A DNA stretch of 35,521 nucleotides from Priapulus caudatus (Eukaryota > Priapulida > Priapulimorpha > Priapulimorphida > Priapulidae), in NCBI RefSeq assembly GCF_000485595.1, contig NW_014577157.1:141609-177129 (forward strand). The letters run 5' to 3'. Numbering within the stretch: position 1 is the stretch's first letter; every line of letters begins with the position of its first letter. Position numbers and translations under genes: made by a program. Positions 3,413 to 35,521 of this stretch are shown here, piece by piece. The notes below the pieces were generated by a model that saw only the letters and a program-made list of their open reading frames with translations, ran no database searches and had not been told where the DNA came from.

Positions 3413-3420
3413 GAGCAGTT

Positions 3421-9870: not shown

Positions 9871-9911
<41 letters not shown>

Positions 9912-10005
9912 CTCTCTATTGCTCTATTTTTCTTCTTATTTCTTTATTGTATTTATTATTCTTATCTTTCTTTTCTTTATTATTCTATTAATTTAAATTA
10001 ATTTT
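8200..10005. repeat. T-rich, G-poor low-complexity tract I
   Basis: About 1.8 kb of T with A and C and only a few percent G, in degenerate tatttt, tcta and ttatta strings and long T runs (for example 9881-9911). The corresponding interval of the second copy (19545-20097) is only ~0.55 kb and of ordinary complexity. The Phe/Leu/Ile/Tyr-only reading frames are spurious. Confidence 0.85.
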
Positions 10006-10008
10006 TAT

Positions 10009-10395: not shown

Positions 10396-10419
10396 GCGAC
10401 GCATTTTTTTTCTTTATCT

Positions 10420-12676: not shown

Positions 12677-12750
<74 letters not shown>

Positions 12751-14120
12751 TTTTTTATTACTTATTTTGTTATTTCTATTCTATTATTTCTCTATAATAT
12801 ATCTATTATATCTTTTCTGTTTCTTATAATTATCTATTTTTCTCTTTTATTATCTATCTAAATATATATATAATTTATCTTCTATATTATATTATTTATC
12901 TATATCTCTATATATTATTCTATATTTCTATATTAATTATTTCTCTCGTTGTTGTCTCTATCTTATTATATTTTCTTTCTTATTATTTATTTATTATTCT
13001 TCTCTATCTTCTTATATATCTCTCTTATATTTATTCTTATTCTGTATTATTCTAAATTATATCTATTTCTATTTTTGATATATTCTTCTCTTTTTATTAT
13101 CTTCTATGTTTCTATATTTTTTGTAATTTATTATTTATAATATTTATTTATTATATTTTTTTTTGTTAATATATATATTATTTTATTTCTTATATTATAT
13201 ATTTTATTTCTTAATAATTTAATTCTAATATTTTCTCTCTCTCTTATTGTTTATTTATTTAATATATTATATCTATATTTCTTCCTGTTTTTTTTAATTA
13301 ATTTTCCATTTTATATATTATTATCATTGTATGTCTCTATATCATTCTTTGTGTCTTCTCTCTCTATATATATAATATCTATCTTGGTTTTTTTTATTTG
13401 TTTTTATCTTAATCTGTCTAATTCTATTCTATCCATTATATATTTATCTATTTTTATCTCTTTTATTCTATTTTTTTTTTTTTTTTTTTTTTCTATATTT
13501 CTATTATTTATTCTGTATTTTGTTTATCTTTTCTCTATATATATTATATATCTCTCTTCTATCTATTTAAATTATATTGTGTATATATATTCTCTTATAT
13601 ATTTATATCTTATTATCTTTCTCTCTTTTCTTTTCCCTTTCCCTCTTTTTTTTTTTTTTTTTTTTTCTCTCTTTTTTTTTCTTCTTTCTCTCTATCTTTT
13701 CTCTTTCTATCTTTCTCTATCTTTCTATCTTCAATCTTTTATATATATATATATTATATTCTAATTATTATCTCTTTATTATATTCTTTCTAATTTTCTC
13801 TAATAATATTATATGTTATTTTTCTATTCCTATTCTATCTATCTCTTCTTTATTTTCTCGTTCTTATCATACTTATCTCTCTATCTTCTCTTTTAAATCT
13901 TTTGTCTATCTATATTTCTTATAATATTATTATCTCTGGTCTCTTCTATCTTGTTTCTGTGTTTATTATTCTTTCTATCTGTTTTCTTTATCTGTCTTTT
14001 AATCTATGTAATTCTTAATATCTCTTTCTTTTTCTCTCTATGTAATATTCTATTATTATATTTCTATTTCTTCTATTCTTATTCATTTATATTATATTTA
14101 TTCTATCTTGTATATATTAT
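10420..14120. repeat. T-rich, G-poor low-complexity tract II
   Basis: About 3.7 kb of degenerate poly-T, tcta and tattt sequence, almost without G. T runs longer than 20 bases occur near 10450, 11578 and 12680-12750. It begins where a CT microsatellite ends. The partner interval in the other copy (20410-22215) is 1.8 kb of normal complexity. No gene is credible here. Confidence 0.85.
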
Positions 14121-14124
14121 TGTC

Positions 14125-14798
14125 TGGTATCAGCGTTATCGGAACAACTTGGCATTAAATTTCTGTTTGTCATAACTTCATCATTTGCATACCGTAATCG
14201 TTTGTATCACAACACGTATCTCATCGTGACATTGTCTCATCACAACGTACGTTGCAGCCCCTACTGGCATCCCATATCAGCCATAAAATACGAACTTCAT
14301 ATCGCGAAATGGAAATGCTCAGAAGAGAAGCCATTCTTCGCGTTGATTAACACGTGTGGCAGAGGCTTGGTATTCCCCCCATTATCAGGTGCTAATGAGC
14401 AGATAAGTTCGTCTAGGGGCCAGAAACCAGCTCTCGTCATAAATATCCATACAGCCTGTGATTGTGCGACGTGCGAAAATATCCATGTAATTTCAGCATC
14501 TGTACAAGGTTGTAACGCGAAGGTACGTGAAATCAGCACACGCCAGCACAGCAGGTGGCAATCAATCCAAAAATGGCAGCAGTAAATTCATTATTATAGC
14601 ACGAAGATAATTATAAAAGACAACATTCCAAAAATGGCACATTTGGCAGTGCGCGACAATCAATAAATTCATCGTCACACAAAACAAACTCGTTGAAACG
14701 AATTGACGTAGGCTCTGGCTTTTCCGCCAACTCAGTGTGTAATGAGATAATCTTAGCGTACAATTCTTGGGCTCAAAGAGCTGGTTGAACCTTCAGCA
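14125..14798 (-). other. Noisy copy of the BCL9 3' flank/UTR
   Basis: It matches 22215-22876 throughout (for example ggcattaaatttctgtttgtcat, split by indels, and aaaaatggcag near 14569) with scattered one-base differences. The only long frame (14202-14585, plus strand) is shared with the other copy only in part and has no family resemblance. Confidence 0.7.
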
Positions 14799-17700
14799 TC
14801 AGAATTGCCATGCCCTGGCTTGATGTGAGGCTGCCTGTTTTGAATTTACTACCTGGCAAGGCATACAGCATGCTCTGAAAGTTTCCGAAACTGCATCATT
14901 GTAGGCAGGGTGCTGGAGACGGGTGGAAAGTAGGGCGTGGTTTGGATCGAGTGTTTGCATAGAGGCGTTCATGTGCATGGATGACTCATGCCAGGATACT
15001 TGGTGCATATGTGACTGCAATCCCATCTCCGACATAATATCTTGTTTCCCGCCCAGGTCCGTCGGCGGCACCCCAATGTTCATGCCTGCCCCCCATCCCA
15101 TCCCTGGATGGCTGCTGCATCATGCGGGTGCCTGACGCGGTGCTGGCCCAATCCCGGACCATGCTGCTGCTGCGCAGGCATGCCCAGCCTCGCTTGGGCT
15201 CTGCCAGATTGCGGCGTGATGCAGCATGGCATAGTTGCTGGTGCATACTACTCCATGTGCATCGAGGTACGGCAATGCCGGGAATCCCGGCCCCCAGCCA
15301 ACCTGCCATCAAATGCACCTGTCCCTGACTCTGGTCCATCATAGGCGCAATGCCGGCGCCGTGCATCATCCAGGCCGATGACTTGCATAGCGCCCGCGCC
15401 CCGGACCCTTGCATCCGTGCCCCGCCCGGACCCTGCCATCGTGCGCCCCCGGACCCTGCATCGTGCCCTGAGCCCGGGACCGCATGCATCGCGCCCCAGG
15501 ACCCCGAGCCTGATCTCATACTTGAGCCGGAATTCGGGCCGGACCCTGATTCCCGGCGGAGCACGCCAACGCACCCCGGAGGGCATTCCCGGCGTGCGGG
15601 GCCACCGGGAGGCAGGCCGCGGCGTCGCGGGCCCCGAGCCAGTGCATAGCTGGCCCACAGCTGCGGGGCCCGCATCGCCTGAACATGGGCGCCGCTCTGC
15701 TGAGGGTCCATCGCGTACATGCGCGGATCGGGTGAGTGCACCGAGGGTTCGCCCTTCATCATGCCCAGTGCACCACCGCCTGCCACCAAAGAACTGCCAG
15801 ATTCTGTCTTCTGGGACGCGCTTCTTCTCCATGCCGGCGGCCATCGGGTCGCAAACCGCTGCAAGAAAGTCAAGAGGTTCAGAAGGTCGCGAGGACGGAC
15901 GTCGGCTGCGCACTCAGCTGGACAGGTACTGGATCGTGGTTCGGCGCGTATCGCCTAGCACCTGGACTGCTCTCGCGTTTGGCGAATGGGCACCGCGGCC
16001 GGTTTGCGCGGCCGGCTGCCTTGGCCCATGCCGCCAACCGCATTGCCGAGCGGCGACCATCTCTGCGACATTCGCCACGTCTGTGTTGGCGGGTGACCAC
16101 GACCCCGTGTGTTGATGCTGCTGCTGCTGGCTCGCTGCTTGCTGCTTGCTGTGACGATGAGCCAGCCGCCTCATCGCCTGCTGGCCATGCTCCATGCTAG
16201 TCTGGAGGCGCGACACCCGCCGGCCCGTGCGGGCATACGCTTGGGGCTCGCCAGTGCGGGACGCCCAAATGTGGGCGCCCGCCCTGCGATGTTCGTCCTG
16301 CCCGACGCTGCATCTGCGGCGTTTGTACCCGAGCGGGAATATTCTGTATGTTGAGCTGCTGAGCATGGAGCATGGTCGCAGTTACACGTACGTGTTGTTG
16401 ACGGCGGGGAGCATGTGCTGGCTGGCGGCGGCGCGCTGCTCACGAACGGCCCAGCGGCCTGCCCCGCCGGCCCGTACACTCTCGCCGTGGCCGGGCCTCA
16501 AAGTGCCGGCAGCCGCGGAAACGCAGGCATGTACGTGCTCGCTGGCGCTGCCGCCGTGCGGCTGCTGCCTGCTGCTCTGCTGCTTGCTGCACCTTCTGGC
16601 ACCGGGTCGAGAATGCCCATCTCAGTGCACACGGCCGACGCTCATGTGCAAGCCCTGCATCATCGGCGCGCCTACCCGCGCCTGCACCGGCATCTGTATT
16701 GTTCACAGGAGCATTCCCACCGGGATGGGCTGGTGCATGGCCCCCGGGTGGGGCGCATGCCCCGGGAATGGCGCGGCATGCCCCCGGCGGTGGGCGGACA
16801 TGGCCGCCGGGAGTGCACCGGCTCGAACTGTCCCAGTCGACAAGAACTGGGCGTGTGGGGTCAGTCGATGAAGCCAGAGCCGGCGGTTGGGGCCGCGGGC
16901 GCGGCCCGAGGCCGCCCATGTATGCCGTGTTGAAGCTGCTCTGTTATCGTCAGCTCCATGTGTGCGAAGGCGGCTGACGTTACGACATCCGCTGCCGCGA
17001 TACGGCACGGGGATCACTCCTCTTGGCGGAGCGCTGCCGCCGACTCCTTCGATCCTTGTGCGGCTGCGCGTAACGCGGGCCTTCGGGCCGTCATCGGCCA
17101 GCCGCTCACTTCGGCGCCGGCGATCAACGCCACGTAACTCCCTGGCGGGCTCATAGGCGCCAATCGCCGCAGACGCCGCCGTTCATATCTGCCTCCTGCT
17201 TGCAGCTTCGACAGCATCTCGGGGCAAAGTGTGTAGTTCTGGTCGACGCGCGCGGTGGGTAGGCGCGGCGGCACGGGTGCCGCGGCGGCGAGCTCATGCG
17301 CGGGCCGTGCGTGGCCCGCCCCTGAACTGGAAGTCGCCGGGCTGCATGTGCGGCCGCACAAAAGTGCGCGTGAGGTAGAGGACGGCCCGGTTTGTTAATA
17401 CTTGTGGCAGGCGGTAGGGCCGAGGCTTGGTTGTAGGGCGGCGGCGCCCGCGGCCCTGCATGCCCGTGTTCACCTGCGCACTCGCCATCATCTTCACTGC
17501 TTTTCTCGCGCCAATGTTACTGCTCTGCAGCGATGCCACTCGATCTGCGCCTTCGCCATGCTCTGGTCCTCGGCGGAGCCACATCGCTGCGTGACGCCAC
17601 ATCATCGATCTGAGTCATCGCCTGCCGCGCGGCGGCAGATGCCCATCATTGCTCTGGCTAGGACTGCTGCTGCTGTTCTGCTGTGCCTGCTGCCTGTGCG

Positions 17701-17929
17701 GCTGGCTGCTGCTGCGGCGGACAGCAACGCAGTGCTGCTGGTTAGAAGCCTCGGCGACGCGCCCGGCGCCACCTGTGGCTGACGGAGCGCCTATTCTCGG
17801 GCAAGAGCATCTCCTATGGATCGACGCATCTTGCGCAGTTGCTCTTCTTCGACGCTGCAGCTGCCTGCGGAAGTCCAGGTTTTCTCTCTGTAGATAGCAA
17901 TCGGGGATTGACGTCTTAGCGGTCGCCAG
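14799..17929 (-). pseudogene. Broken second copy of the BCL9-like terminal exon
   Basis: It is collinear with the intact terminal exon at 22877-25804, including the stop-codon region at 14799-14801 and the HD2-encoding region near 17820-17900. The frame is destroyed by dozens of small insertions and deletions. The long CAG/CTG runs of the intact copy appear here as interrupted ctgctgctg and ctgcttgctg strings. The number and even spread of indels argue for sequencing error or an uncorrected haplotype more than for a biological pseudogene. It should not be counted as a second gene. Confidence 0.75.
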
Positions 17930-18261
17930 CTTCACGGCCGGAAAACAACACCGTTGGCAGCGACAAAGGCTGGCAGTAGAGGCAGGAACTGGTTCAGCCC
18001 TGCCCCCCAACCGTGCCCGCTACAATAATTATTCTCCTGTGGGACAGACCAGTAAAAGTCTTGCAAAACCAATTTTCGACGGTTATATAAAAGTAAAATC
18101 TCAATCAAAAATTTGAACAAATAGGCATAAGGGATTTACATTGGTTATCAGGTAAGAAGAAAATTAAAAACGACACAAATTTTAGCAACATCAATTCTAT
18201 AAGAAAGCCAAACCACTTGGAAAAATACTGCTCAGTTATGTCAATCAGTAATCTACAGTAC

Positions 18262-18471
18262 TCATGGCATTACAGACATGCATTGTTCACAGTGTATTCC
18301 CTGGCAAGTCGCGAACATCCTGAAATAGGCATGGACATGGAGCTGGCTTAGATGCTGGGACGCACCTTCCCTGGCCTCCCCACTGTAAGGGATGAGACAC
18401 CTGGCGGCGGGGGGGCACTCATTGCCCAATGGTTCACCTTATCGTTGTAGCTTCATCGCGCCTGGACGAGC
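18262..18471 (-). pseudogene. Broken second copy of the extra exon at 26116-26307
   Basis: It carries the same acceptor context (poly-T, then gcttcac in place of gcttcag) and the same ctcgtccagg and cagtggggaggccaggg strings. Several indels break the open frame. The flanking intron matches 25810-27030 on both sides. Confidence 0.6.
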
Positions 18472-19254
18472 CGTGAAGCAAAACAATTAATTTTTATGGA
18501 GGCAAAAAGTGTTGGGCGGGTGACGAAGAGCACACTTCCAATGTACAGAGTTTGGACTAAAAACATTGGAGAGTAGCAAGCTAGTGAGTACTTAGATAGT
18601 TACTAACAAGTCCATTGAAAAATGGTAAACCAGCAACAGGGGAGATGGTTTTTGCCATTTGCATTCGTTTGCAAGCGAGAAAAGGACAGACGAGCAGTCT
18701 CTTATAAAGTATATCCAAATTGTCAATTACTTTTTTAATGATTTCAACATAAATTCACATCGCACGGTTCAACCATAGCTGGGGGCACCGGAAACGATAG
18801 GCTTATGTTCTCCATTGTGATTCGTGAATGCGGTCTATTGATACACCTGTTAAACTGATGACGCTTAAATTCGATGCTTCTACAATCAAAGAAAATTACA
18901 ATTCAATGGTCAGGCACAAATGCCCCATACATCTTTAACATTCCGTCTACGGTACACTTTACATTCCGTCTTCAGGTCAAGGCCAATAACCAGCAATGCA
19001 ATAAGCCTCGTGGCTTGCATACTGAGTAACATGTTTGGTGACAGCATAATAAGATTGTATGCTAATTTAAAAAGATCAGGCGTATGCGCATGACCAGCGA
19101 CAAAATAAACCTATATCTGTAACAGTGCACATGTACCTGATTCTTAGACCTAACACACACTGCACATTCGCCGTATGTACGATGCTACTTGTCACCCGAT
19201 AATGAGAGATTTGTAAGCCGTACAGTTCACATCCAAGGTCAAATAAGATCTCTC

Positions 19255-19279
19255 NNNNNNNNNNNNNNNNNNNNNNNNN
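19255..19279. other. 25-N assembly gap
   Basis: There are exactly 25 N characters, probably a fixed-size placeholder and not a measured distance. It separates the noisy copy on the left from the cleaner copy on the right. Confidence 0.98.
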
Positions 19280-22214: not shown

Positions 22215-22876
22215 TGACGTAGGGCTGGTATCGCGTTATGGCAACTTGGCATTAAATTTCTGTTTGTCATACTTCATCATTTGCAACACCGTATCGTTTG
22301 TATCACAACACGTATCTCATCGTGACTTGTGTATCACATACGTATCGTTGCAGCCCTACCTGCATCCCATATCACCATAGAAATAGAACTTCATTCCGAA
22401 ATGGAAATGCTCAGAAGAAGCCATCTCGCGTTATTACAACCGGTGTAGGCAGAGGCTGGTATTCCCCCATTATCAGTGCTAAGATGCAGATAAGTTCGTC
22501 TAGGGCCAAACCAGCTCTCGTCATATCCATCAGCCTGTGCTTGTGCGACGTGCGAAAATATCCATGTATTTACAGCATCTGTACAAGGTTGTACGGAAGG
22601 TACGTGAAAATCAGCACACGCCAGCACAGGCAGGTGCAATCAATCCAAAAATGGCAGAGTAAATTCATTTATATACACGAAGATAATATAAAAGACAACA
22701 TTCCAAATATGGCACATTTGGCAGTGGCAGACAATCAATAAATTCATCGTCACCACAAAACAAACTCGCTTTGAACGAATTAGACGTAGGCTCTGGGCTT
22801 TTCCCGCCAACTCAGTGTGTTAATGAGATATCTTAGCGTACAATTCTGAGCTCAAAGGCTGGTTGAACCTTCAGCA
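22215..22876 (-). other. BCL9: Probable 3' UTR and downstream flank of the BCL9-like gene
   Basis: This is AT-rich sequence directly after the stop codon at 22877-22879 on the minus strand. A canonical aataaa was not found on the minus strand. A weak variant (tataaa) lies near 22669-22674. The interval has a noisy counterpart at 14125-14798. Confidence 0.4.
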
Positions 22877-24118
22877 TCAGAATGGCATGCCCTGGCTTGA
22901 TTGAGGCTGCTGTTTTGATTTACTACTGGCAGTGGCATACAGCTGCTTCTGAAAGTTCTGAAACTGCACATTGTAGGCAGGGTCGCTGGAGACGGGTGGA
23001 AAGTAGGGCTGGTTTGGATCGAGTGGTTGCATAGAGGCGTTCATGTGCATGGACTGACTCATGCCAGGCATACTTTGGTGCATATGTGACTGCAATCCCA
23101 TCTCCGACATCATCATCTTGTTTCCCGGCCCAGGCCCCGTCGGCGGCACCCCAATGTTCATGCCTGCCCCCATCCCCATCCCTGGATGCTGCTGCATCAT
23201 GCCGGGTGCCTGAGGGTGCTGGCCCATCCCGGGACCATGCTGCTGCTGCGGCATGCCCAGCCTCGCTTGGCTCTGCACCATGCCGGCGTGATGCAGCATG
23301 GCATGTTGCTGGTGCATACTACTCATGTGCATCGAGGTAGGCATGCCGGGAATCCCCGGCCCCCCGGCAACCTGCATCATGCCCTGTCCCTGACTCTGCA
23401 TCATGGCCATGCCGGCGCCGTGCATCATCCCAGGCCGATGACCTTGCATCGCGCCCGGCCCCGGACCCTGCATCGTGCCCGGCCCCGGACCCTGCATCGT
23501 GCCCGGCCCCGGACCCTGCATCGTGCCCGGCCCCGGACCCTGCATCGCGCCCGGCCCCGGACCCTGAATCATCACTTGAGCCGGATTCGGGCCCGGACCC
23601 TGCATTCCCGGCGGGCCCGCCAACGCCCCCGGGGGCATTCCCGGCGTGCCGGGACCACCGGGAGGCAGGCCCGGCGTCGCGGGCCCCGAGCCGTGCATGC
23701 TGCCCACGCTGCCGGGCCGCATCGCCTGCATGGCAGCCGCTTGCTGAGGGTCCATCGCGTACATCGCGTCGGGTGAGTGCACCGGGTCGCCCTTCATCAT
23801 GCCCAGTGCACCACCGCCGCCACCAAAGAACTGCAGATTCTGCTTCTGGGACGCCTTCTTCTCCATGCCGGCGGCCATCGGCGTCGCAAACCGCTGCAGA
23901 AAGTCGAGGTTCAGAGGTCGCGAAGGACCGGACGTCGGCTGCGCGCTCGCTGGACGGTACTGGATCGTGTTCGGCGCGTTCGCCTGCACCTGGACGCTCG
24001 CGTTGGGGGCACCGGGCGTGCGCGGCCCGGCTGCCTGCCCGCCGCCACCCTGCATGCCCGCGGCGACCATCTGCTGCGACATCGCCGTCTGGTTGGCGGT
24101 GACCACGACCCCGTGCTG

Positions 24119-24158
<40 letters not shown>

Positions 24159-25557
24159 GACGAGCCAGCGCTCATCGCCTGCTGCATGCTCATGCTAGTC
24201 TGCGGGTGCGCACCGCCGCCGGCGCCGTGCTGCATCGCTTGGGCGCCGTGCGGGACGCCCATGTGGGCGCCCGCCTGCATGTTCGTCTGCCCGACCTGCA
24301 TCTGCGCGTTGTACGCCGAGCCGGGAATATTCTGTATGTTGAGCTGCTGGATGGACATGGTCGCGTTCACGTACGTGTTGTTGACGGTCGGGGGCATGTG
24401 CTGCTGCGGCGGCGCGCTGCTCACGAACGCCAGCGGCCGCCCCGCCGCCCCGTACATCTCGCCGTGGCCGGGCTCAAAGTGCGACAGCCGCGGACCAGGC
24501 ATGTACGGCTCGTGGCCGCCGCCGTGCGGCTGCTGCTGCTGCTGCTGCTGCTGCACCTTCTGGCCACCGGGCGAGAATGCCATCTCGTGCACAGGCCCGA
24601 CGCTCGAGTGCAGCCGCTGCATCATCGGCGCGCCCATCCGCGCCTGACCCGGCATCATGTTCACGGGCATCCCACCGGGATGGGGCGGCATGCCCCCGGG
24701 GTGGGGCGGCATGCCCCCGGGATGGGGCGGCATGCCCCCGGGGTGGGGCGGCATGCCGCCGGGGTGCACCGGCTCGAACTGTCCGTCGACAAACTGGCGC
24801 GCTGTGGGGTCATCGATGAAGCCAGAGCCGGCGGTGGCGGCCGCGGGCGCGCCGCCCGGCTCCATGTATGCCGTGTTGAGCTGCTTCTGTATCGTCAGCT
24901 CCTGCGTGTCGAAGGCGGCGACGTACGACATCGGCTGCGGCGACGGCACGGGGATCACCTCCTTGCGCGCGTCTGCCGCCGCCTCCTTCATCTTGTGCGG
25001 CTGCGCGTACGCGGGCGGCTTCGGGCCGTACATCGCCGCCGCCACTTCGCCGCCGGCGATCACGCCGTACTCCTGCGGGCTCATAGGCGCCATCGCCGCG
25101 ACGCCCGCCTTCATCATCTGCTCCTGCTGCAGCTTCGACAGCATCTCGGGGCTGTTGTAGTTCTGGTCGAGCGCGCCGGTGGGCGGCGGCGGCGGCACGG
25201 GCTGCCCCGGCGGCGAGCTCATGCGCGGGCCGTGCGGGCTGAACTGGAAGTCGCCGGGCTGCATGTGCGGCGACACAAAGTGCGGTGAGGTAGAGGACGC
25301 CCGGTTGTTAATACTGTGCAGGCGGTGGCCGAGGCTCTGGTTGTAGGGCGGCGGCGGCCCCGGCGGGCCCTGCATGCCCGGGTTCACCTGCGCACCGCCC
25401 ATCATCTTCACCTGCTTCTCGCGCATGTACTGCTCCTGCAGCCGATGCCACTCGATCTGCGCCTTCGCCTGCTCTGGGTCCTGCGGGAGCACCATCCGCT
25501 GCTGCGCCATCATCATCTGACTCATCGCCTGCCCGCGCGGCGGCATGCCCATCATGC

Positions 25558-25613
<56 letters not shown>

Positions 25614-25804
25614 GGCGGCATCGCGTGCTGCTGGTAGAACGCCTCCGGCGACGCGCCCGGCGCCACCTGTGGCTGACACTTCTCGGGGAAGAGCATCTCC
25701 TGGATGCGACGCATCTTGCGCAGTTGCTCTTCTCGACGCTGCAGCTGCTGCGGAGTCAGGTTTTCTCCTGTAATGCAATCGGGATTGACGTTAGCCGGTC
25801 GCAG
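22877..25804 (-). CDS. BCL9: BCL9/Legless terminal exon: HD2 and C-terminal activation region
   Basis: This exon is 2,928 bases and encodes 975 residues plus TGA. Near its start LTPQQLQRREEQLRKMRRIQ is followed by EMLFP. This is the HD2 helix that docks on beta-catenin: the Arg after the His-equivalent and the hydrophobic Leu, Met, Ile, Leu, Phe face of vertebrate BCL9 are kept. Some 100 residues on, AQIEWHRLQEQYMREKQ matches the conserved post-HD2 helix (EQIAW-LQ-E-Y-EK in BCL9). The rest is Met/Gly/Pro/Gln-rich, as in BCL9, and ends in GMPF, comparable to the NMMF end of the human protein. The acceptor chosen (gtgaag before CTG at 25804) keeps phase 0 with the HD1 exon. A stronger-looking acceptor (cattacag, exon from about 25762) would need phase 1. 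GC content is far above the introns. A broken copy lies at 14799-17929. Confidence 0.92.
23443..23575 (-). repeat. 24-base coding repeat (Gly-Pro-Gly-Pro-Gly-Thr/Ala-Met-Gln)
   Basis: About five near-identical 24-base units encode GPGPGTMQ or GPGPGAMQ inside the terminal exon. The uniformity suggests recent slippage or unequal exchange. The noisy copy around 15400-15490 shows fewer, garbled units. Confidence 0.85.
24119..24157 (-). repeat. Polyglutamine tract (pure CAG), ~12 codons
   Basis: An uninterrupted CTG run on the plus strand encodes polyGln followed by His-Gln-His. A second coding CAG run (about 24529-24554) encodes 8-9 Gln. Pure CAG runs are expected to vary in length between individuals. 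Confidence 0.9.
24664..24765 (-). repeat. 21-base coding repeat (His-Pro-Gly-Gly-Met-Pro-Pro)
   Basis: Four to five 21-base units encode HPGGMPP in tandem within the terminal exon. The only variation between units is at synonymous positions (cccgggg and cccggga). Confidence 0.9.
25559..25613 (-). repeat. Longest polyglutamine tract (pure CAG), ~18 codons
   Basis: An unbroken CTG run on the plus strand encodes about 18 Gln between an Ala-Met-Pro-Pro and a Ser-Met-Met context, some 55-60 residues after HD2. In the noisy copy (about 17655-17720) the same place reads as broken ctgctg strings. Confidence 0.9.
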
Positions 25805-26115
25805 CTTCACGGGGCAACACCGTTAGGCGGGACAAAGGTGGCATAGAGCAGGAACTGGTCAGCCCATGCCCCCCAACCGTCCCGCTACAATAATTTTCCT
25901 GTTGGCAGCCCAGTAAAAAGTCTTGCAAAACCATTTTCGACGGTTATAAAAAGAAAAATCTCAAAAAATTTGAACAAATAGCATAGGATTTACATTGGTT
26001 ATAGGTTAAAAGAAAATTAAAAACGACCACAAAATTTTAGCACATCAATCTGATAAGAAGCCAACCACTTGGAAAAAATACTGCTCAGTTTATGTCCAAT
26101 CAGTTCTACACGTAC

Positions 26116-26307
26116 TCATGGCATTAGGCATCATTTGTTCACAGAGTATCCCTGCAGGTCCGACATCTGAAATAGGCACTGGACTGGGCTGGCTAGATGC
26201 TGGACCACCTCCCTGGCCTCCCCACTGTAAGGATGGAGACACCTGCGGCCACTCATTGCCCAACTGGTTCACCTTATCTTGTAGCTGCTCCAGCGGCCTG
26301 GACGAGC
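26116..26307 (-). CDS. Probable additional exon between HD1 and HD2, phase unresolved
   Basis: An excellent acceptor (ttgtttttgcttcag) precedes 26307. The frame beginning with two carried bases is open for 63 codons (it starts SSRPLEQLQDKVNQLGNEWP and then becomes Gly/Ser/Pro/Gln-rich), in keeping with BCL9 linker style. A donor-like gtacgt follows ATGA at 26116 and would leave phase 1, matching the cattacag acceptor of the terminal exon (about 25762). However the HD1 exon ends in phase 0, so joining it here gives an early stop. Either a small exon or base is missing, or this is an alternative exon. Splice ends are tentative. Confidence 0.5.
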
Positions 26308-26731
26308 CTGAAGCAAAAACAATTAATTTTTATGGAGGCAAAAGTGTTGGCGGGTGAGAGAGCACACTCAAGTACAGAGTTTGGACTAACAACATTGGAG
26401 GAGTACAACTAGTGAGTACTTAGAGGTTACTACAAGTCATTAAAATAGGTAAAGCCAGCAACAGGGAGATGGTTTTTGCATTTGCATTCGTTTGCAAAGC
26501 GAGAAAGGGCAGAACGCAGTCTTTTAAAGGAACCAAATTGCAATACTTTTTTTAATGATTTCACATAAAAATTCAACATCGCACGTCAACCATACCTGGG
26601 GGCACGGAACAGATAGGCTTGTTTCCATTGTGATTCGTGAATGCGGTAGAACACCTGTTAAACTGATGAAGCTTCATCGGATGCTTCTACAATCAAAGAA
26701 AATTACCATTCAATGTCAGGCACAATGCCCA

Positions 26732-26779
26732 TACATCTTTACATTCCGTCTCAGGTACATCTTTACATTCCGTCTCAGG
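26732..26779. repeat. 24-base intronic tandem duplication
   Basis: The unit acatctttacattccgtctcaggt-like sequence occurs twice back to back. The same two-copy arrangement, with indels, is at about 18928-18980 in the noisy copy. This supports both copies representing the same locus. Confidence 0.85.
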
Positions 26780-27278
26780 TCAAGGCAATAACCAGCAATT
26801 CATAAGCCTCGTGGCTTGCATACTGAGTACATGCTTGTGACAGATTATAACGATTTATGCTAATTAAAAGCATACAGGCGTGGCAAGACAGGACAAAATA
26901 AACTATATCTGTAACAGTGCACATGTACCTGTTCTAGACCTAAACACTGCAGCATGCCCATGTACGTGCTAGCTTGTCACCTGATAATGAGGGATTTGTA
27001 ACCTACAGTTCACCCCGAATAGGTGAGATCTTATTATTTCATTGTATGGTTATACATATGCCTAGAACAATATTCGCACTGTGCTCAGGTTAGCACAAAT
27101 TTTACGTACTTCCTTTACGCACAATGCAAACTGTTTAAAATCATTAATCCTCTAAGAAGGTTAGGAGTAACAGTCTGAAATTGAATTAATCCGACTGTAA
27201 ACCCCCCTCCTCCCCCACCACAGGTATCAATCAGAACCTCAATCAGCCATTCACTTGGACAGTTCGGCTGCTACATAC

Positions 27279-27455
27279 CTGTAAGAACTGTTTCGTGGCT
27301 GGCTGTGAGCAGTGAAAGGCGATGATAGACGGGCAGTGGCCCTGCATAACGGCCTCGGCCGCCTTGTTGGCCATCTGCGTCGTGAAGACGAATATCTGAC
27401 TCTGCTGTTGCATGTACTGGGGGTCCATAGGTGGTTTTGGCACATTTGACGGTAC
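27279..27455 (-). CDS. BCL9: BCL9/Legless HD1 exon (Pygopus-binding)
   Basis: The exon is 177 bases, 59 codons, phase 0 at both ends. The acceptor is aacaatgtgcag at 27456 and the donor gtatgt follows CAG at 27279. The product contains SQIFVFTTQMANKAAEAVMQ followed by a conserved IIAFH. This is almost identical to BCL9 HD1 (YVFSTEMANKAAEAV in the human protein), the helix that packs against the PHD finger of Pygopus. The preceding Pro/Gln-rich residues and the short tail before the donor are unremarkable. It has no copy in the noisy block, which ends before this exon. Confidence 0.93.
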
Positions 27456-27968
27456 CTGCACATTGTTCATGACAAATGTTAACTTATGTATATAATTGGT
27501 TACATCCAAGCAGAGAACTTTCGTGTGAATCGTTGAAGATATTGATCACATCAAATATCAAGTTTCTCAGTCTTGATCAAGAAGCGAACCATTCATCCTT
27601 ACTGGCCACTTACTTTACAACTTGGCCTTACTAAGAGGTTTCATTATGCTTTGACCAATGCATCACTTCGACAATATGAATGCCACAATATACTATGTAT
27701 GTAATTAGAGTCACTGTAGTTTTTTTGAACCAGTATTTTTGAATGAATCGTTCACTAAAACCATCGTATGTGAAGAAGATAGGGGCCCATTGTCAGACAC
27801 AAAATTAGTCTTAACATTAGTCTGAACATCAACTTTTTCCTCTATACACTGCGTACGGTAAATTAGTAACTCCAAGATAGTTCTGTCAACTGTCCATGAG
27901 GAAAAGTTCATGTTAAAACTATTGTTAAGAGTAATTTCGTTTCTGACAACGGGCTTCGGGACACTGAC

Positions 27969-28141
27969 CTGCTGCGGTGTACCAGGACCCCCCGATATTT
28001 TGCTAGATTGCGGCGTTGGTGCCTTTGTAGGCCGTTTCGAGGGTGCGGCTTGTGGTTGTGAGGTAGCAGATTGTGGACCAGGGGTCGGAGTACTGCTGTC
28101 AACACTCTTCATGCCATCCGCTGCGCCATTGGGAGTGTGCC
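27969..28141 (-). CDS. BCL9: BCL9-like linker exon upstream of HD1
   Basis: The exon is 173 bases. The acceptor tctctccatctag ends before GG at 28141 (phase 1 in) and the donor gtcagt follows CAGCAG at 27969 (phase 0 out). The translated linker begins HTPNGAADGMKSVDSSTPTP and is Ser/Pro/Thr/Gln-rich. The joined Gln-Gly-His-Thr-Pro start recalls the His-Thr-Pro-rich segment before HD1 in vertebrate BCL9. No folded domain is expected. Confidence 0.85.
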
Positions 28142-28442
28142 CTAGATGGAGAGATACAACTGTAGCATTAGTGTGGTCTACCATCGTTCTACACTCCGTT
28201 GATATACTTTAGTCATGAGTATGTACGAGCTAGGTGCTGCATTTGTTGAAACTATATTGTGGGAAGAAAATATTGCAAATGTTATAATCGAAAGTATGGT
28301 CATACGCAGGCAGAGAGTTTGGTAGCTAAACAGTATAACAGGAAACCACGCTTCTGGAGATGTGAAATTGGTGAGGTGACTGGTTGCAATCGCATACAGC
28401 AGTAAGGGGTACGAATTCTACCTACAATCTGCACACATTTAC

Positions 28443-28668
28443 CTTGCACACTGTTGCACTGAGGGGTCGCAGGGGTTCCTGGCATCTGGACAGAAATCGG
28501 CGTATTGCTTTCCGATGCCTCAACCTTCTCCTGCACGCCCTGGTCCTCAGTCTTCAGCACATCGTCCAGCTTGCCATTGCCCCCACCAGGCGTCAGCATC
28601 GCCTCTGCTTTGACCAGCTTATTGTTCTCGGGCAGGGTGGGCTTCACGTCATTCTGTTCTTCCTTCAC
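28443..28668 (-). CDS. BCL9: BCL9-like N-terminal linker exon (Lys-Gln/Glu-rich)
   Basis: The exon is 226 bases, phase 0 in (acceptor ttatgttacgacag) and phase 1 out (donor gtaaat after CAAG). It encodes VKEEQNDVKPTLPENNKLVK and then an acidic, Thr/Gly-rich stretch ending near PQCNSVQ. The VKEEQNDVKP start may correspond to the KQEVMVRP segment of vertebrate BCL9. Alternatively it continues a KEE-rich region after a WHIM module. Composition is disordered and no motif defines a function. Confidence 0.8.
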
Positions 28669-29182
28669 CTGTCGTAACATAAAAACGTGAAGTGACGCTA
28701 TATATTGAGTGCCTGGTTCTCACATCGCAGCACGGGGAAGCTTTTCAATTAACATTGAACTGTTCATTACATGTTCACTCATATACACTCATAAAGGTCT
28801 CATGTTTTTGTACTCTTCAACTAGAACACTATTATACGGGATTACACTTTGTAACCAACTCCCTACTGCCACCTATAAAATCACGTCATTTTACACTTCC
28901 TGAAACATTTTCAGCACAATTTCAGAAATCAGTTAGCGTCGCAAGCGTTCACCGGGCATTAAGTAGAAATCCCGGTTTACAGGAAAACCTGCAAGCTTTT
29001 CTCAGACATGAGACAATATGTACACAAAATCCTCAACACGCTGGTATAGCCTATGGACACGTTGTTAGACATTACTGAGAGCAGCCATCACCTGTTATCG
29101 GGTTCAGATTCACTAAACTCGGTATTGCGATAGAACTGCATGCTAGCGTTTACACACCGTGAACATGAACGATATGCCCAAC

Positions 29183-29360
29183 CAGGGCCGTACGCAGCAG
29201 GGGGGCAGCAGGGGCAGTTGCCCTCCCTAGAGATTTTCAGAGTATGCCTTTTAATGGGACAAATAGGGCAATAGAGGGTGTGGGGAGTACCTTTGCCCCC
29301 CCTACAGAAAATTTCCTGCGTATTTGCCCCCCTACAGAAAATTTCCTGCGTACGGCCTTG
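29183..29360. mobile_element. Short inverted-repeat element (178 bp)
   Basis: The ends are cagggccgtacgcag (29183-29197) and its inverse ctgcgtacggccttg (29346-29360), with one mismatch. The inner part is G-rich on one side and C-rich on the other (ggggggcagcaggggca against ttgccccccct). A ~30-base unit containing ctacagaaaatttcctgcgta is tandemly doubled at the right end. No target duplication was seen. It looks like a MITE remnant sitting in an intron. Confidence 0.6.
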
Positions 29361-29393
29361 CACCACTGATATACCACATAATACTACCACTGC

Positions 29394-29580
29394 TATAAAG
29401 CACTAAATATATACTACTGCAACTACGTAGAACTACAAAGCACTATATAACACTAGTGCGACTACGTAGAACTAAAAAGCACTATATAACACCATTCCAA
29501 ATACGTACAGCTTACGACCACTATATTAATACTACTCCGACTGCACGGAACTAAGAAGCACTACATAACACTACTGACTG
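29394..29580. repeat. Intronic minisatellite, period about 60 bases
   Basis: Repeated strings ctacgtagaacta and agcactatataacact recur three times with increasing divergence. Confidence 0.75.
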
Positions 29581-29666
29581 TGTGGGACTCCATAGTACTG
29601 TAGAGGATGCCAGCTCTATACCAGGAATAACAGTAAGCACCCGTAATAGCATCACCAAGCGCGCAC

Positions 29667-29854
29667 CTTCAACTGCACCTCGATCTTTGGCATCAGCTTC
29701 TCGGTGACGTAGGAGAAGAGGTCCTTCTCCGCAGGGCTCTTGCTAGCCGCATACCGCTTCGCGAAGCCCTGCCACTCCAGCAGGCTGGAGCAGACGCATT
29801 CCCAGTCCCGCTTGCTGGGCTTCTTCGCCGTGTTCTCCTTATAAAGCCTCAGAT
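29667..29854 (-). CDS. WHIM-like exon (CECR2/RSF1 type)
   Basis: The exon is 188 bases, 62 codons, phase 1 in (acceptor tgttctactgtctggttgcag) and phase 0 out (donor gtgcgc). It encodes LRLYKENTAKK, then RDWECVC, EWQGFAKRY, EKDLFSYVTEKLMPKIEVQL. The spacing of R-YKE, W-x-x-VC, EW, then E-x-x-L-x5-E-x-LMP-x-I follows the WHIM segment of CECR2 as I remember it (RMYKED, WWLLC, EEW, ERQLYKLLSEDFLPEI). RSF1 shares the first half. WHIM modules support ISWI-type chromatin remodelling. Nothing like this is in vertebrate BCL9. Strong splice borders and helical character make it a real exon; whether it belongs to the same transcript as HD1 is inferred. Confidence 0.8.
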
Positions 29855-29879
29855 CTGCAACCAGACAGTAGAACAACCC

Positions 29880-31619
29880 TGCAGAATTACTTCCGTCTTC
29901 TACGGATGATAACTAAACGCCTCTCATGAAGGTTTTAATTAAATTTATATCAAATACTGTGCCAGTTTAAAAAAATGCAATAGTCGGTTACAAAAAGTGA
30001 CCCCTACATAATAATTACAAGATAAGATCTGTATACGGAGGTTGAATTTGAATTTACGCTGGGTAAGTGTTGTTTTTGCTTTAATCAGAACTTTTAGGTC
30101 ACCACGGGTACCAAGGCAGAAGTTTCGTTCACAGATGGGTTATCAGAAGGCCAGTTACCTTTTAACAAGACTTTTTATATGAGACAAACAGTGACACATA
30201 GAAAACGTTCAATAAAGAGCATGGAATAAATCCAGAGGCAGACCAGGGCGCAAACCAGGTAGGGCAACCACAGTGCTGCGGCAAGACCCATGGCAAAATT
30301 CGAGTGTGTAGAAAACTTTATCATAGTTACAGACAACCATGCTACATAATATTGACAAACCCCAGGCTAAAAACCCAAATTCCTGAAACGTGAATGTTCT
30401 GAGTAGGATTTTTCAGAGAGAAATTAAACTATAAATCATATGATGTAGCTGTAAGTAGTGAAATTATCGGTTTGATAGATCTGTCTAAAGCTCCTGCAAT
30501 CCTCCTGGAGGGGAAAGGCATTTACTGTCTAAATGCAACATGCCACGTTTAGCAATGACATGCAACTACACTATTAACACCACTAGTCTCCAGTCACTGT
30601 GATATTCGAAAACAATTACGTCTGGGCGGGGCTGGTAAGACCAGCATAATGCAGTTAACAAACGAAATTCATACGAGCACTGTGCAAAGTATGAAATGTC
30701 ATGTAAGTTGCTCGAGTCATGCCAAGTCAATGCTAACCACCATACGGCAGTGCTGCCAGCCCCACCACGGTGCTAGCCAGTAACCAGTACGGTGCTAGCC
30801 GGCCCCACCACGGTGCTAGCCGGCCCCACCACGGTGCTAGCCGGCCCCACCACGGTGCTAGCCGGCCCCACCACGGTGCTAGCCGGCCCCACCACGGTGC
30901 TAGCAAGCCCTTTCCTGCGCTCACTGCACCACAGTGTCCATTCAGACAATAACTAGTATACAGCATTAGGTGCGAAAAAGAATCTCCACAAACCATTTTC
31001 CACTTATCTAACTAAATTTAAACATTAACCTTGTACGTTATGGCACGACTGCTCCAGTATGGTCTAAGAACACAGTGAGCGATTAGATCATGAAAGGGGG
31101 CTACGGTAATAGCTGCGGATATTAACTGCCTCTAAGATGCTTATGAACAGCACCCTCAGCCGACAATTCTAAAGCATACTTTGATTGTAAACTATATGTC
31201 TGCAGCCTGCTGTAACATTTAATTAGGCAAAAACAGGTGCAAGAAACGTATTTATTCTCATGAGATGTTTTTCACCAGAGAATCAATAATTGGGCTTTTT
31301 AGTGATTTTTGGAATAGGGTACGCTCTGAGATTGGTTCTGATATTGACAAGCATTCAAACGTTGAGTGCACTGTAGAACATCCAAAAAAATCCAATAAGT
31401 GGCAATGCCATATCATAGATCCATATAAAGATGTACAAACTTTGATAGATAAAATCTTTCAAAATCATACTTTGAAAAAAATACTGGCTATTTAGTTCCA
31501 TGATATGGAATTGCTGAAATACACATGCCCACAAAAACTGGAATAAGGCAGAATAGAAATATTGACATAATAATTTCCATAGAATTGCTAAAAAAAAGCC
31601 AAATATCAAGTCTACTCAC
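29880..31619. other. Intron with a minisatellite
   Basis: This is the intron between the two WHIM-like exons. Apart from the 21-base array at 30748-30904 it is unique AT-rich DNA with no further exon recognised. A 76-codon plus-strand frame at 31265-31495 is not supported by any motif. Confidence 0.5.
30748..30904. repeat. 21-base GC-rich minisatellite in an intron
   Basis: About five to six perfect copies of cggtgctagccggccccacc plus one base, flanked by one or two degenerate copies. The unit contains a gctagc and a ccggcc palindrome. The array is open in several frames only because its period is a multiple of three. Confidence 0.92.
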
Positions 31620-31674
31620 CATCAAAATACCAATACTTGTTGTTACAAGCATCCTTGCCAATAACGGTACCCCG
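31620..31674 (-). CDS. Small WHIM-like exon (YWYF core)
   Basis: This 55-base exon is easy to miss. The acceptor is cttctgtactgtctgtttttag and the donor gtgagt follows GATG at 31620. Phase is 0 in, 1 out, matching the acceptor at 29854. It encodes RGTVIGKDACNNKYWYFD, and across the junction gives YWYFDDLRLYKEN. In CECR2 the same place reads G-x-D, then YWYFYGTRMYKED (from memory), so the Gly-x-Asp, Tyr-Trp-Tyr-Phe, Arg and Tyr-Lys-Glu landmarks all agree. That the match runs across a predicted splice junction is strong support for both exons. Confidence 0.78.
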
Positions 31675-31689
31675 CTAAAAACAGACAGT

Positions 31690-32495
31690 ACAGAAGAATA
31701 AGTTACAGTCACAGTGCAGTTTAATGAATAAAATTACAATTTATAGGCAAAATGAACCACACGACACAGTTGCACTTAATGGCACTGGGCCTCCTTCAAT
31801 GTGACATTGCAAGTGGCGCTGTAAAATTGTCAGTTTCAAAGTTCAATAATTTAATTCAGCACAACGACATACTTAGGTAAACAAAATTTCAAATACATGC
31901 TAACACTGGCTATGCAAATACATATATATTGCATGAATCAACTTGTACTCACGCATGTTTGCTCAAGTTCTCAACTCAATCTCACAGCTCAATATTAAAC
32001 ACCTACTTGAGAGCATAAGAGGCTAGGAATACAAAGTCAGTGTGTGCACCAAACCTTATTAGAGCTCGGTGATAAATACTTACACATCAAAGCATCAGTG
32101 TACACACCCCTTTTATTGCCTCTTCACTCATCTCCATTCGTGTCATCTAATCTTCTGTGGGACATTTTTTCGTCCCTCCTCCCATACCTCCTTTTCTTAC
32201 TCTCCACTCCATGGTCCATACCCCCACTTCCTCTCTACTCATCCTAATCCCCCTTTCTTTCTATTCCCCTCACACCCTTTTTACTCAACCCTATACTGTC
32301 TTTTTCCTCCTTCCCTGACCCCTTCTTTCTGTCTCCTTTCTTTGTTCCCACTGCCCTCTCTGGATGGTTTTGTGGAAAAAATACTGCGCTTTGCATATAT
32401 ATCAAATAGTTCTAATCACAGTTATTCAATTTGAAGAGTAAATTTAACATGGCCAGCTGGTGAATTCATCTTTATCCTGCAACGTAGCTGCACCT
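31690..32495. other. Intron with a pyrimidine-rich stretch
   Basis: No exon of a DDT-type domain was found. 32100-32350 is C/T-rich on the plus strand, which leaves frames open without coding character. Two isolated donor-like strings on the minus strand (near 31955 and 32088) have no acceptor or open frame before them. Confidence 0.4.
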
Positions 32496-32501
32496 GCTCA
32501 C

Positions 32502-32596
32502 CATATCACTCGACTTGTGGTTGTTGTTCGCACGCTTGCTCATGCCCTCCGCGCAGATCGAGCGACAAAATCAATCAGCCTCTTTCCTGGAGTAGC
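32502..32596 (-). CDS. Candidate first coding exon
   Basis: The minus strand has an acceptor (gtcttcgttgcag) before 32596 and a donor (gtgagc) after ATG at 32502. An ATG at 32541-32543 opens MSKRANNNHKSSDM, ending in phase 0, which fits the 31674 exon. The sequence before the ATG has stops in frame, as a 5' UTR would. The peptide has no homology, and a real N-terminus (for example a DDT domain) could instead lie beyond the window. This is the weakest exon in the chain. Confidence 0.35.
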
Positions 32597-32999
32597 CTGC
32601 AACGAAGACAGCTGATGACTATGTAAACTGCGTGCTCAATTCTAACGAAATAAACTCACAGCAAAACCATGCAAATGCGCAGATGGAGCAGCTAGCAAAC
32701 GGGGCAACTACAATTGATCTTAGCTCACGCTCAAAGGCATGGACAGGGAGGCAATGCAACAGGGGAGATGATGGATGGGACGAAATTAGGAGAGAAGATA
32801 GAAGAATTCAGTTAACCAGACAGCAGTTGGTGAAAAGGGGAGAAGAAGAATGTGAGTGGAGGTCAAGTAATGAGGTCAATATAGACGGAGGCGAAAGAGT
32901 AAAGAAGGTTTGGTAAATCAAGAGAGAGGAGGGGTGACGTCGGGGGTACACACGGGGCTTCATACAAGGCCAGGAAGTGATACATTGTGTGTTTGAAGG

Positions 33000-33065
33000 A
33001 AAATAGAAAGAGAGAGAGAGAGCGCGCGCACGAGAGAGAAGAGGGGAGGGAGGAGAGACAGGCAG
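33000..33065. repeat. GA/GC microsatellite
   Basis: (GA)n followed by gcgcgcgcac and a purine-rich stretch. The Ser/Leu-rich minus-strand frames across it are by-products. Confidence 0.8.
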
Positions 33066-33304
33066 GGAAGGAAAGCAGATAGGCGTCATGAACGTGAAGA
33101 AGAAAAAATGCATACTTAGATCTCAACAGACACGTACGTGGAGAAGGCACACTGAAACTGTAAGAGATCATGCAGGGACCTAATAGCAGGAAGTGGCAGG
33201 ATGTATCTAAACGCAGCAGCGCGAGAGTGAACAAGCAGCTAAACCATTGCGATAAAAACACAACTGGCTGCAGAGAGCTGCCTTATTCTATAACATTTAC
33301 TCAC

Positions 33305-33620
33305 GTGAGGTCGGCCACATAGCTGCGGCCATGGTGTGGTGAGCTGTCTCAGCCAATCATGTCTACTTCCTAGGTTCTGTGACCCGCGCGCTCACTCCCG
33401 ACGACTCTCTGTAATAGAGACATCTTTATAGCTAATTGGCGTGCCTGCTCTCATCTGCTAAATGCAGTGTCGTCATCGCTAGTGTCGAATAAATCACATG
33501 AGTGGTTCGGCTCGCTGTCAGCCACGCGCGGGCAGCTTACAGCTTACGCGCCGGCGTACTGACAAATAGCGGCTGTTTGTCGTTCATTGCGACGCTACGC
33601 CCAGCCACATCAAAAAATCC
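33305..33620 (-). promoter_or_regulatory. Candidate promoter and 5' UTR exon of the minus-strand gene
   Basis: A strong minus-strand donor (gtgagt) follows 33305. Upstream on that strand are an ATG (33330-33332) in a good context, an inverted CCAAT box (plus-strand agccaatca near 33351) and a CpG-rich stretch (about 33380-33600). Spliced to the acceptor at 32596, the ATG at 33330 gives only a short upstream reading frame of about 17 codons ahead of the ATG at 32543. The arrangement is plausible for a first exon but unproven. Confidence 0.3.
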
Positions 33621-34370
33621 TGGCAGCGGCTGATACACACTGTTCGGCACACTCAAGCCCTATATATAAATTACATAGCTTCTCCCCGTGATGGGAGCCG
33701 GGGGTAATCACGAGAAATATGGATTAGTGTTAGTGGATACGTTATTAATTGCACCACGTGCAAGATCGCATGTTCTCGTCATTGACCACATGCTGCCTGA
33801 ATGACAGGGACCTGATCTTTCTTGACCACCCCTACCTACTGCCACACAAAACCTGGCAATGCAGCTGTGAACAAGCATTGGAAGCTTTGGGATCTGTGCA
33901 ATCTCTGCATCCTCATAAACCACAATATTGATTTTACGCGCAGCAGCGCTGCCCACAAAGGATAAGGACTTCGTGTTATTTCGATCTTGTTCAGCAAACA
34001 GCGGCTGATCAGCTTGCTGCGCCGTATTACTTTTAAAATTTCGCGTCAAACATGTGTGTGCCTTCGCACGTCTCATTTCGCCTCTGCACCCGGCGGCGCT
34101 TTTCAGCTTCGCTGCTACATTAAGATTCGTTTTTCTGCATCGGCAAACACGAGCATCTGTAAATGATCTGCATCTCAAACTGCCCTTGCCACCGCAGGCT
34201 CCAGCCATTCTGCGGCGTCCTTCTGCTAACATGGGACGAGGATAGTAGATTTACACTAACTGATAGCAGGCGGGCAGTAAAAAGAGAAGCCAATGAACGA
34301 ATATATTCTGAAGGCAGGCGGTAGACGTCTACGACAGAGATACAGTAGGCAAGATCTATAGATATGTAAG
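33621..34370. other. Upstream flank without a firm gene
   Basis: A TATA-like tatatataa lies at 33661-33669. A 174-codon minus-strand frame (33708-34232) is open in ordinary-complexity DNA but shows no domain, no splice logic and no homology, so it is not called. Confidence 0.35.
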
Positions 34371-34379
34371 ACAAGAATG

Positions 34380-34680
34380 TATCATGCAGAAAATAAGAAG
34401 GCTCACGCAGATTGCAACAAAACTAGAAGTTACACAATTAAACAACAGACACCACATCCATGACACATGTATGACAAAAATGCAAGAGAGAAACATGACA
34501 AAAAATGCAACAGAGACAGATAACAAAACATCAAGTTACACAGATGGAAAACAGCATACACAGATAAGAAAAATACTGCTGAAACATTAAAGGAGAGCAG
34601 ATACTGGTGACAAGACAACATACACAAATGACAAGAATACCACTGAAACAGATGACACAGAAACCCATTGGATAAATCAA
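34380..34680. repeat. Degenerate A/C/G-rich repeat
   Basis: The plus strand is T-poor and carries loosely repeated strings such as acacagat, gacaaaa, caagagagaaac and cactgaaacagatgacac. Period is unclear. Confidence 0.4.
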
Positions 34681-35289
34681 CTAACACGTAGAGAATTCAG
34701 ATATTCTGCGCCAACACACGAAGCCATAATGAAGCGTGTGCGCATTTAGCTGTCTGGATAGCCTCGTGTTTTCGCTAACAGTCAACACGATCTGTAAACG
34801 CACAGCGATCATCGTCTGCTCTCAGTCAAATAGGCGTGCGTGTCATAGGCACTGACACTGACAGGCGGCAGGGTGTTGTACAATCAGACTCTCGCGTACT
34901 GGCAATAACGGAGATGCTTTGTGCTAGGCCACAAAACATGCCTTTTTACAGGACGCAAAAGCACTAAGCACACGTCCAGCAATGACACCGGGGGGTTTCA
35001 TCTGTGCAAGCGCTACAGTCATTATGAAAGGGACATCTCAGATTCAAGCGCAGCGAACCATGTATTCGAATCTATACATATCACAAATGGAACCGAAACG
35101 GTTTCCCATCGAGAGAGAATAAACTCATAGCCAGCAAGCAGGCGATGAGCTGCATTCTCCCCTTTCCAGTCGTGCTGAGATTGATCAAGCAGGCGGGAAG
35201 ATATATGATGTTCTTACTTTTGCTGGCTGCCATGCTCAGGTCAACCTGGCAGTGATGTCGACAAGTAGGCAAAACATATCATGTTCTTT

Positions 35290-35521
35290 CTCACTCCCAC
35301 GTACTTTTAGGTGAAGCAGGCAGGCAGATAGACATGCAAGCAGCACGCAGACAGACAAGCACGCAGGCAGGCATATATACGGACAGGGAGATACTGCATG
35401 CTCTCTCTCTCTCTCTCTCTCTGTCTCTCTGTCTCTCTCGCTCCCGCTCTCGCTCTCGCTCTCGCTCTCACTCTGTCTCTGTCTCTCTGTCTCTGTCTCT
35501 GTCTCTCTGTCCCTGTCCCTG
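35290..35521. repeat. Tetranucleotide and CT microsatellites at the window edge
   Basis: gcaggcaggcaga- and cagacagacaag-type tetranucleotides (about 35315-35375) are followed by (CT)n and ctgtct/ctcgct variants from about 35400 to the end. The array runs off the window. Confidence 0.9.

What the first reader, a model, noticed from the sequence alone, without database searches (positions are those of the whole stretch)
27279..31674. Possible WHIM-BCL9 fusion gene
Two exons (31674-31620 and 29854-29667) together spell a CECR2/RSF1-like WHIM segment, and its diagnostic YWYF...RLYKE motif is created exactly at their splice junction. They lie just upstream of, on the same strand as, and in phase with exons encoding BCL9 linker and HD1. 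Known BCL9/Legless proteins have no WHIM module. If the exons are one transcript, the protein would tie an ISWI-type remodelling module to the Pygopus/beta-catenin complex. Alternatives are a tandem neighbour whose last exon lies here, or a misjoin.
Basis: partly seen in the sequence, partly recalled or inferred. Interest (0 to 1): 0.8.

Follow-up and report, generated by a model that had tools for sequence, protein, structure and literature searches.

The report
Ancient chromatin-remodeller arm on BCL9
In many invertebrates the Wnt-pathway adaptor BCL9 carries an extra front end shaped like the part of other proteins that grips ISWI nucleosome-sliding machines, a piece that databases do not label and that the vertebrate BCL9 records seen here lack.

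Summary
A WHIM2 profile built only from other species finds exactly the two named exons in the window (E 3e-24 and 5e-6; next best 0.96), and eight minus-strand exons from 31674 to 22877 splice in phase into one 1,330-residue frame with WHIM2, HD1 and HD2. It is very unlikely to be a private fusion or a misjoin: of 35 BCL9-like proteins found, 17 carry WHIM2 and 16 also the preceding DDT/WHIM1 part, in odonates, horseshoe crab, spiders, tick, an annelid, a nemertean and amphioxus. Two vertebrate and several arthropod records lack it, so the module is probably ancestral and repeatedly lost. Pfam sees DDT, WHIM1 and WSD in canonical order, mostly below threshold. A confident AlphaFold2 model aligns best, over 219 of 236 residues, with Ioc3, the ISWI partner in yeast ISW1a. 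The window's own DDT/WHIM1 exons were not found; the window ends at 5.5 kb of N where they may lie. Most likely the protein recruits an ISWI remodeller to Pygo/beta-catenin-bound enhancers; that step is inferred. Ten paper searches, seen as listings, showed no description of such a BCL9 module.

The parts
31620..31674 (-). coding exon: first part of WHIM2/WSD (RGTVIGKDACNNKYWYFD), with the GxD signature GKD
   Evidence: profile hit E 4.7e-6
29667..29854 (-). coding exon: rest of WHIM2/WSD (DLRLYKE...MPKIEVQLK); its junction with the exon above completes YWYFDDLRLYKE
   Evidence: profile hit E 3.4e-24; only scored match of the Tachypleus module in the assembly, C97:171275-171502
28443..28668 (-). 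coding exon: acidic/lysine-rich linker with VKEE and VKAE, starts in phase 0 as the WHIM exon ends
27969..28141 (-). coding exon: S/T/P-rich linker
27279..27455 (-). coding exon with HD1, the Pygopus PHD-binding region
   Evidence: HD1 match to solved Legless HD1, E 1.9e-8
27303..27401 (-). HD1 proper (SQIFVFTTQMANKAAEAVMQGHCPSIIAFHCSQ)
   Evidence: query residues 10-42
26596..26686 (-). coding exon after HD1
26116..26307 (-). coding exon before HD2
22877..25767 (-). last coding exon: HD2, poly-Q tracts and P/G/M/Q-rich C-terminal part, ends with stop
25679..25765 (-). HD2, beta-catenin-binding helix (ENLTPQQLQRREEQLRKMRRIQEMLFPEK)
   Evidence: PF11502 42.9 bits over cut-off 25; solved BCL9 HD2 chains 2gl7 and 3sl9, E 0.001-0.002

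Best explanation
The exons are one gene: the organism's BCL9/Legless orthologue, which keeps an ancient N-terminal DDT-WHIM1-WHIM2 module. Shown: the WHIM2 exons, their phase with the BCL9 exons, the same order DDT-WHIM1-WHIM2-linker-HD1-HD2 in related BCL9 proteins, and a predicted fold of a relative's module that best matches the ISWI partner Ioc3. Inferred: the module holds an ISWI-family remodeller (as Ioc3 and ACF1/BAZ proteins do), while HD1 holds Pygopus and HD2 holds beta-catenin, so that the protein brings nucleosome spacing or sliding to Wnt-responsive enhancers. Also inferred: the module was present in the bilaterian ancestor of BCL9 and was lost in vertebrates and in several arthropod lines.
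Confidence: 0.78

Rival explanations
1. Neighbouring gene or assembly misjoin: the WHIM exons belong to another DDT-WHIM gene that only happens to lie upstream of BCL9.
For: The assembly has errors here: a noisy second copy of the BCL9 3' part (window 14124-19230) and N runs.
Against: The same order in 17 of 35 BCL9-like proteins, 14 of them from 11 named species in four phyla; in-phase junctions; the Tachypleus module scores at no other place in the 385-Mb assembly (one candidate scored); the other WSD and DDT genes found there look BAZ2-like, BAZ1A/ACF1-like and BPTF-like by eye and lie on other contigs.
Confidence: 0.03
2. The long form is real but minor: most BCL9 is made from a downstream promoter or start codon and lacks the module, so the module has a restricted role only.
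For: Several records begin inside the linker (for example P0018 from Ixodes starts at MKCNGAPSVDK, which is internal in Rhipicephalus P0009; P0021 and P0025 start near the MIKE stretch of Hetaerina), and exon 28668-28443 of the window has in-frame Met codons.
Against: Many such records may simply be incomplete gene models; the module stays well conserved (33-64% identity to the first row in the two module alignments), which suggests selection.
Confidence: 0.2
3. The module keeps the DDT-WHIM fold but no longer binds ISWI; it binds another partner, or its first half acts like a CH domain.
Against: CH matches cover only about half of the module, Ioc3 covers 219 of 236 residues; Pfam DDT, WHIM1 and WSD fall in the right order; GxD and YWY are invariant across the aligned set.
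Confidence: 0.22

Closest known systems
BCL9 / BCL9L / Legless (Wnt enhanceosome adaptor)
   Same: HD1, HD2, long P/Q/M-rich C-terminal part; blocks NNTYVNATMSIQQLNIQ and APNTI shared with several invertebrate BCL9s
   Different: Carries an N-terminal WHIM2 (in relatives DDT-WHIM1-WHIM2) that the vertebrate records P0035 and P0036 lack; that Drosophila Legless lacks it is recalled, not tested
Ioc3, accessory subunit of yeast ISW1a (2y9y, 2y9z, 7x3t)
   Different: No sequence-level match; Ioc3 has no BCL9 HD1/HD2 (recalled)
BAZ1/ACF1, BAZ2, BPTF, CECR2, RSF1 and KIAA2026 (DDT and/or WHIM proteins)
   Same: Domain order DDT, WHIM1, WSD with GxD; weak Pfam DDT, KIAA2026_hel, WHIM1 and WSD matches; the BCL9 DDT profile reaches a BPTF-like DDT (E 0.0019)
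   Different: No bromodomain or PHD matched in the five proteins scanned whole; profile tests against BAZ2-like WSD and DDT of this genome did not stand out; CECR2 and RSF1 themselves were not compared

Membership tests
BCL9/Legless | HD1 (Pygo PHD binding) | tested here: met
   E 1.9e-8 to Legless HD1 of 3zpv
BCL9/Legless | HD2 (beta-catenin binding), PF11502 | tested here: met
   42.9 bits, cut-off 25; 2gl7 and 3sl9 E 0.001-0.002
BCL9/Legless | HD3 (ChiLS contact) and C-terminal blocks | tested here: inconclusive
   APNTI and NNTYVNATMSIQQLNIQ blocks shared with other invertebrate BCL9s; HD3 not tested by a model
BCL9/Legless | orthology in a tree | tested here: inconclusive
   19-row quick tree places the window beside annelid/nemertean and arthropod BCL9s with long branches and open forks
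DDT-WHIM (ISWI accessory) module | WHIM2/WSD with GxD and YW | tested here: met
   Window: profile of relatives E 3.4e-24 and 4.7e-6; GKD and YWYF present. Pfam WSD itself sub-threshold, 16 bits against 25.4
DDT-WHIM (ISWI accessory) module | DDT domain upstream | tested here: inconclusive
   Relatives: Pfam DDT in 6 of 10 module sequences, best 5.2e-5, over cut-off in P0028. Window: none found; a 5.5-kb N run begins at its edge; no Pfam DDT on this contig
DDT-WHIM (ISWI accessory) module | WHIM1 between DDT and WHIM2 | tested here: inconclusive
   Relatives: 4 of 10 module sequences, best 0.0025, below cut-off; not found in the window
DDT-WHIM (ISWI accessory) module | fold of a solved ISWI partner | tested here: inconclusive
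DDT-WHIM (ISWI accessory) module | binds ISWI HAND-SANT-SLIDE | not testable with these tools
   needs biochemistry
CECR2/RSF1 | sequence closer to CECR2 or RSF1 than to other DDT-WHIM proteins | not tested
   No CECR2 or RSF1 sequence was compared; resemblance recalled only

The most novel reading that the evidence does not exclude
The ancestral animal BCL9 was itself an ISWI accessory subunit: a DDT-WHIM nucleosome ruler with built-in Pygopus and beta-catenin arms, so that Wnt signalling directly steered nucleosome spacing at its enhancers. The vertebrate and fly proteins on which the Wnt enhanceosome model rests are then shortened descendants that lost this arm, in several lineages independently.
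Probability: 0.55. Interest if true: 0.9.

Novelty: new variant of a known kind. Interest (0 to 1): 0.77.

Why it matters
BCL9 is described, in the passages read, as an adaptor between Pygopus and beta-catenin with HD1 to HD3 and a C-terminal part, and the remodeller tied to the Wnt enhanceosome there is BAF (PMC5352222 and PMC10287724). A built-in ISWI-type module in annelid, nemertean, chelicerate, odonate and amphioxus BCL9 would give a physical link between Wnt/beta-catenin and ISWI remodellers, which work in flies had tied to Wingless targets through ACF1 (Liu et al. 2008 as cited). It would also mean that the standard model organisms show a reduced form of the protein, and it makes a direct binding test possible.

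Tried and rejected
Misjoin or tandem neighbour: judged very unlikely because the order recurs across phyla. DDT/WHIM1 exons in the window: tblastn and profile search gave only chance-level hits (cut output, and 50); C97:177000-216999 also none; the first 5,479 bases beyond the window are N, whether an assembly gap or withheld I cannot tell. Pfam DDT in the whole assembly: two places, C1523 (BPTF-like by eye) and C1263 (BAZ2-like by eye), neither on this contig. Sequence link to solved structures: none for the spliced segment nor for the module profile. WHIM2 profile against the genome's BAZ2-like WSD: not clear, 7 of 500 shuffles scored higher. Pfam on X-filled three-frame translations of the minus strand 26000-35521 found nothing relevant, because the WHIM segment is split by an intron. 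NCBIfam: nothing relevant. Protein searches 2 and 3 reached only amphioxus, so the list of species rests on one search of limited sensitivity; absence from molluscs, echinoderms or cnidarians cannot be read from it. The origin of P0028 is unknown. A tree to place the window's organism was unresolved.

Papers: ten searches, seen as listings with the start of abstracts; passages were read in PMC5352222, PMC11789628, PMC8536118, PMC3820798, PMC6238394, PMC5575660 and PMC10287724. Aimed at this point: BCL9 with WHIM (one paper, titled on Waldenstrom macroglobulinemia, not opened), with 'DDT domain' (none), with DDT as a whole word (7, none on this by title and abstract start), with ISWI (14 hold both words, 13 listed, none on this by title and abstract start). 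Searches (166 papers, 20 listed; 228, 15 listed; 737, 12 listed) were capped lists. The library holds open-licence papers only, so 'not in print' is not claimed.
Full report
What is there. On the minus strand, eight exons run from 31674 to 22877 (31674-31620, 29854-29667, 28668-28443, 28141-27969, 27455-27279, 26686-26596, 26307-26116, 25767-22877); every internal border is AG/GT, all phases agree, and the spliced frame is 1,330 residues long with a single terminal stop. HD1 and HD2 of BCL9 follow and are confirmed against solved structures and Pfam.

More than chance. A WHIM2 profile made from nine BCL9 proteins of other sources, the window row left out, was run against all 1,511 six-frame stop-to-stop segments of at least 12 residues in the window. 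The two best hits are the two exons (E 3.4e-24 and 4.7e-6), the third has E 0.96. Pfam's own WSD model gives only 16 bits, cut-off 25.4, so annotation by cut-off would miss it.

Not a private fusion. One protein search with the whole frame, scored on residues 1-290, returned 35 proteins at E <= 1. By profile, 17 of the 35 carry WHIM2 and 16 the DDT/WHIM1 part in front of it (P0014 starts inside WHIM2). The profiles were trained on some of these, but blastp with the window's 81-residue segment finds the same 17. Fourteen of the 17 come from 11 named species in four phyla: Hetaerina americana and Ischnura elegans (odonates), Tachypleus tridentatus, Araneus ventricosus, Nephila pilipes, Uloborus diversus and Rhipicephalus microplus (chelicerates), Owenia fusiformis (annelid), Tubulanus polymorphus (nemertean), Branchiostoma floridae and B. 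belcheri (amphioxus). P0011, P0014 and P0028 are unnamed contig proteins. In each the module precedes the HD1 motif. Sixteen of the 17 carry the precomputed BCL9 domain; P0028 does not, but its HD1 region superposes on Legless HD1 (3zpv, 47-50% identity). The window WHIM2 is 42-54% identical to theirs.

Records without it. Eighteen of the 35 have no WHIM2 match, among them two vertebrates (P0035, P0036), a beetle (P0025), wasps and an ant (P0027, P0029, P0031), a mite (P0026), an ostracod (P0030), Artemia (P0021) and a millipede (P0017). Several of the 18 are short or contig-derived and may be incomplete: P0018 from Ixodes starts at a methionine that is internal in the Rhipicephalus protein. 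Carriers and non-carriers are interleaved among arthropods in a rough tree, so ancestral presence with several losses is the simplest reading; it is an inference.

The missing first part. DDT and WHIM1 exons are not in the window by this profile. The window is C97:141609-177129 of a 385-Mb assembly, and the next 5,479 bases are N. In C97:177000-216999, of which 11,180 bases are N, there is no hit. The Tachypleus module scores at a single place in the whole assembly, the window's second exon (one candidate scored). So either those exons lie in the gap, or they have diverged or been lost here. This is the main hole in the case for this species.

How it most likely works. From the passages read, DDT and WHIM motifs together form the pocket that holds the SLIDE domain of ISWI, with linker DNA (PMC8536118; PMC11789628), though the GxD signature is not proven to be the contact. 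BCL9 HD1 binds the Pygo PHD finger and HD2 binds beta-catenin (PMC5352222; PMC10287724). A protein with both would bring an ISWI remodeller to Wnt enhancers. Whether it closes chromatin before the signal or opens it after cannot be told; ISWI and ACF1 are reported to repress Wingless targets (Liu et al. 2008, not read, cited), which favours a role in the silent state. The binding step is inferred.

Novelty. Proteins with this architecture are in public databases under names such as 'protein BCL9 homolog', but the only domains precomputed for the 17 are the BCL9 one and, in P0016, PF02389 (Cornifin); P0028 has none. Ten searches of the paper library, seen as listings and partly capped (see Tried and rejected), showed no description of a DDT/WHIM module in BCL9. 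It is a new variant of a known kind.

Noticed in passing
window 14124-19230: A second, noisy copy (85.8% identity, 516 gap positions) of window 22225-27013, the 3' part of the BCL9 gene, with broken frames; it ends just before a run of 25 N (19255-19279). Most likely an uncollapsed haplotype inserted by scaffolding, not a paralogue.
   Followed up: partly
window right edge, C97:177130-182608: The window stops at a 5,479-base run of N, the likely place of the DDT and WHIM1 exons.
   Followed up: yes
window 30763-30930: About six copies of a 21-base tandem unit (CCACCACGGTGCTAGCCGGCC) in the intron between the two WHIM exons.
   Followed up: no
window 29297-29352: Two identical 26-base pieces 30 bases apart (CCCCCCTACAGAAAATTTCCTGCGTA), possibly part of an interspersed repeat.
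   Followed up: no
window 2001-3500, 5000-6300 and 8000-14000: Strongly biased low-complexity tracts: purine-rich, CA-rich, and a 6-kb T-rich stretch with GC of 12-32 percent.
   Followed up: no
L001, L003 and L010 (C1263), L002 (C53), L009 (C1523): The assembly has other WSD or DDT genes over the Pfam cut-off, by eye BAZ2-like (C1263), BAZ1A/ACF1-like (C53) and BPTF-like (C1523).
   Followed up: partly
P0028: Unnamed contig protein with a DDT-WHIM module plus divergent HD1 and HD2-like segments and a long charged middle; its origin is unknown and it may be an early-branching animal.
   Followed up: partly
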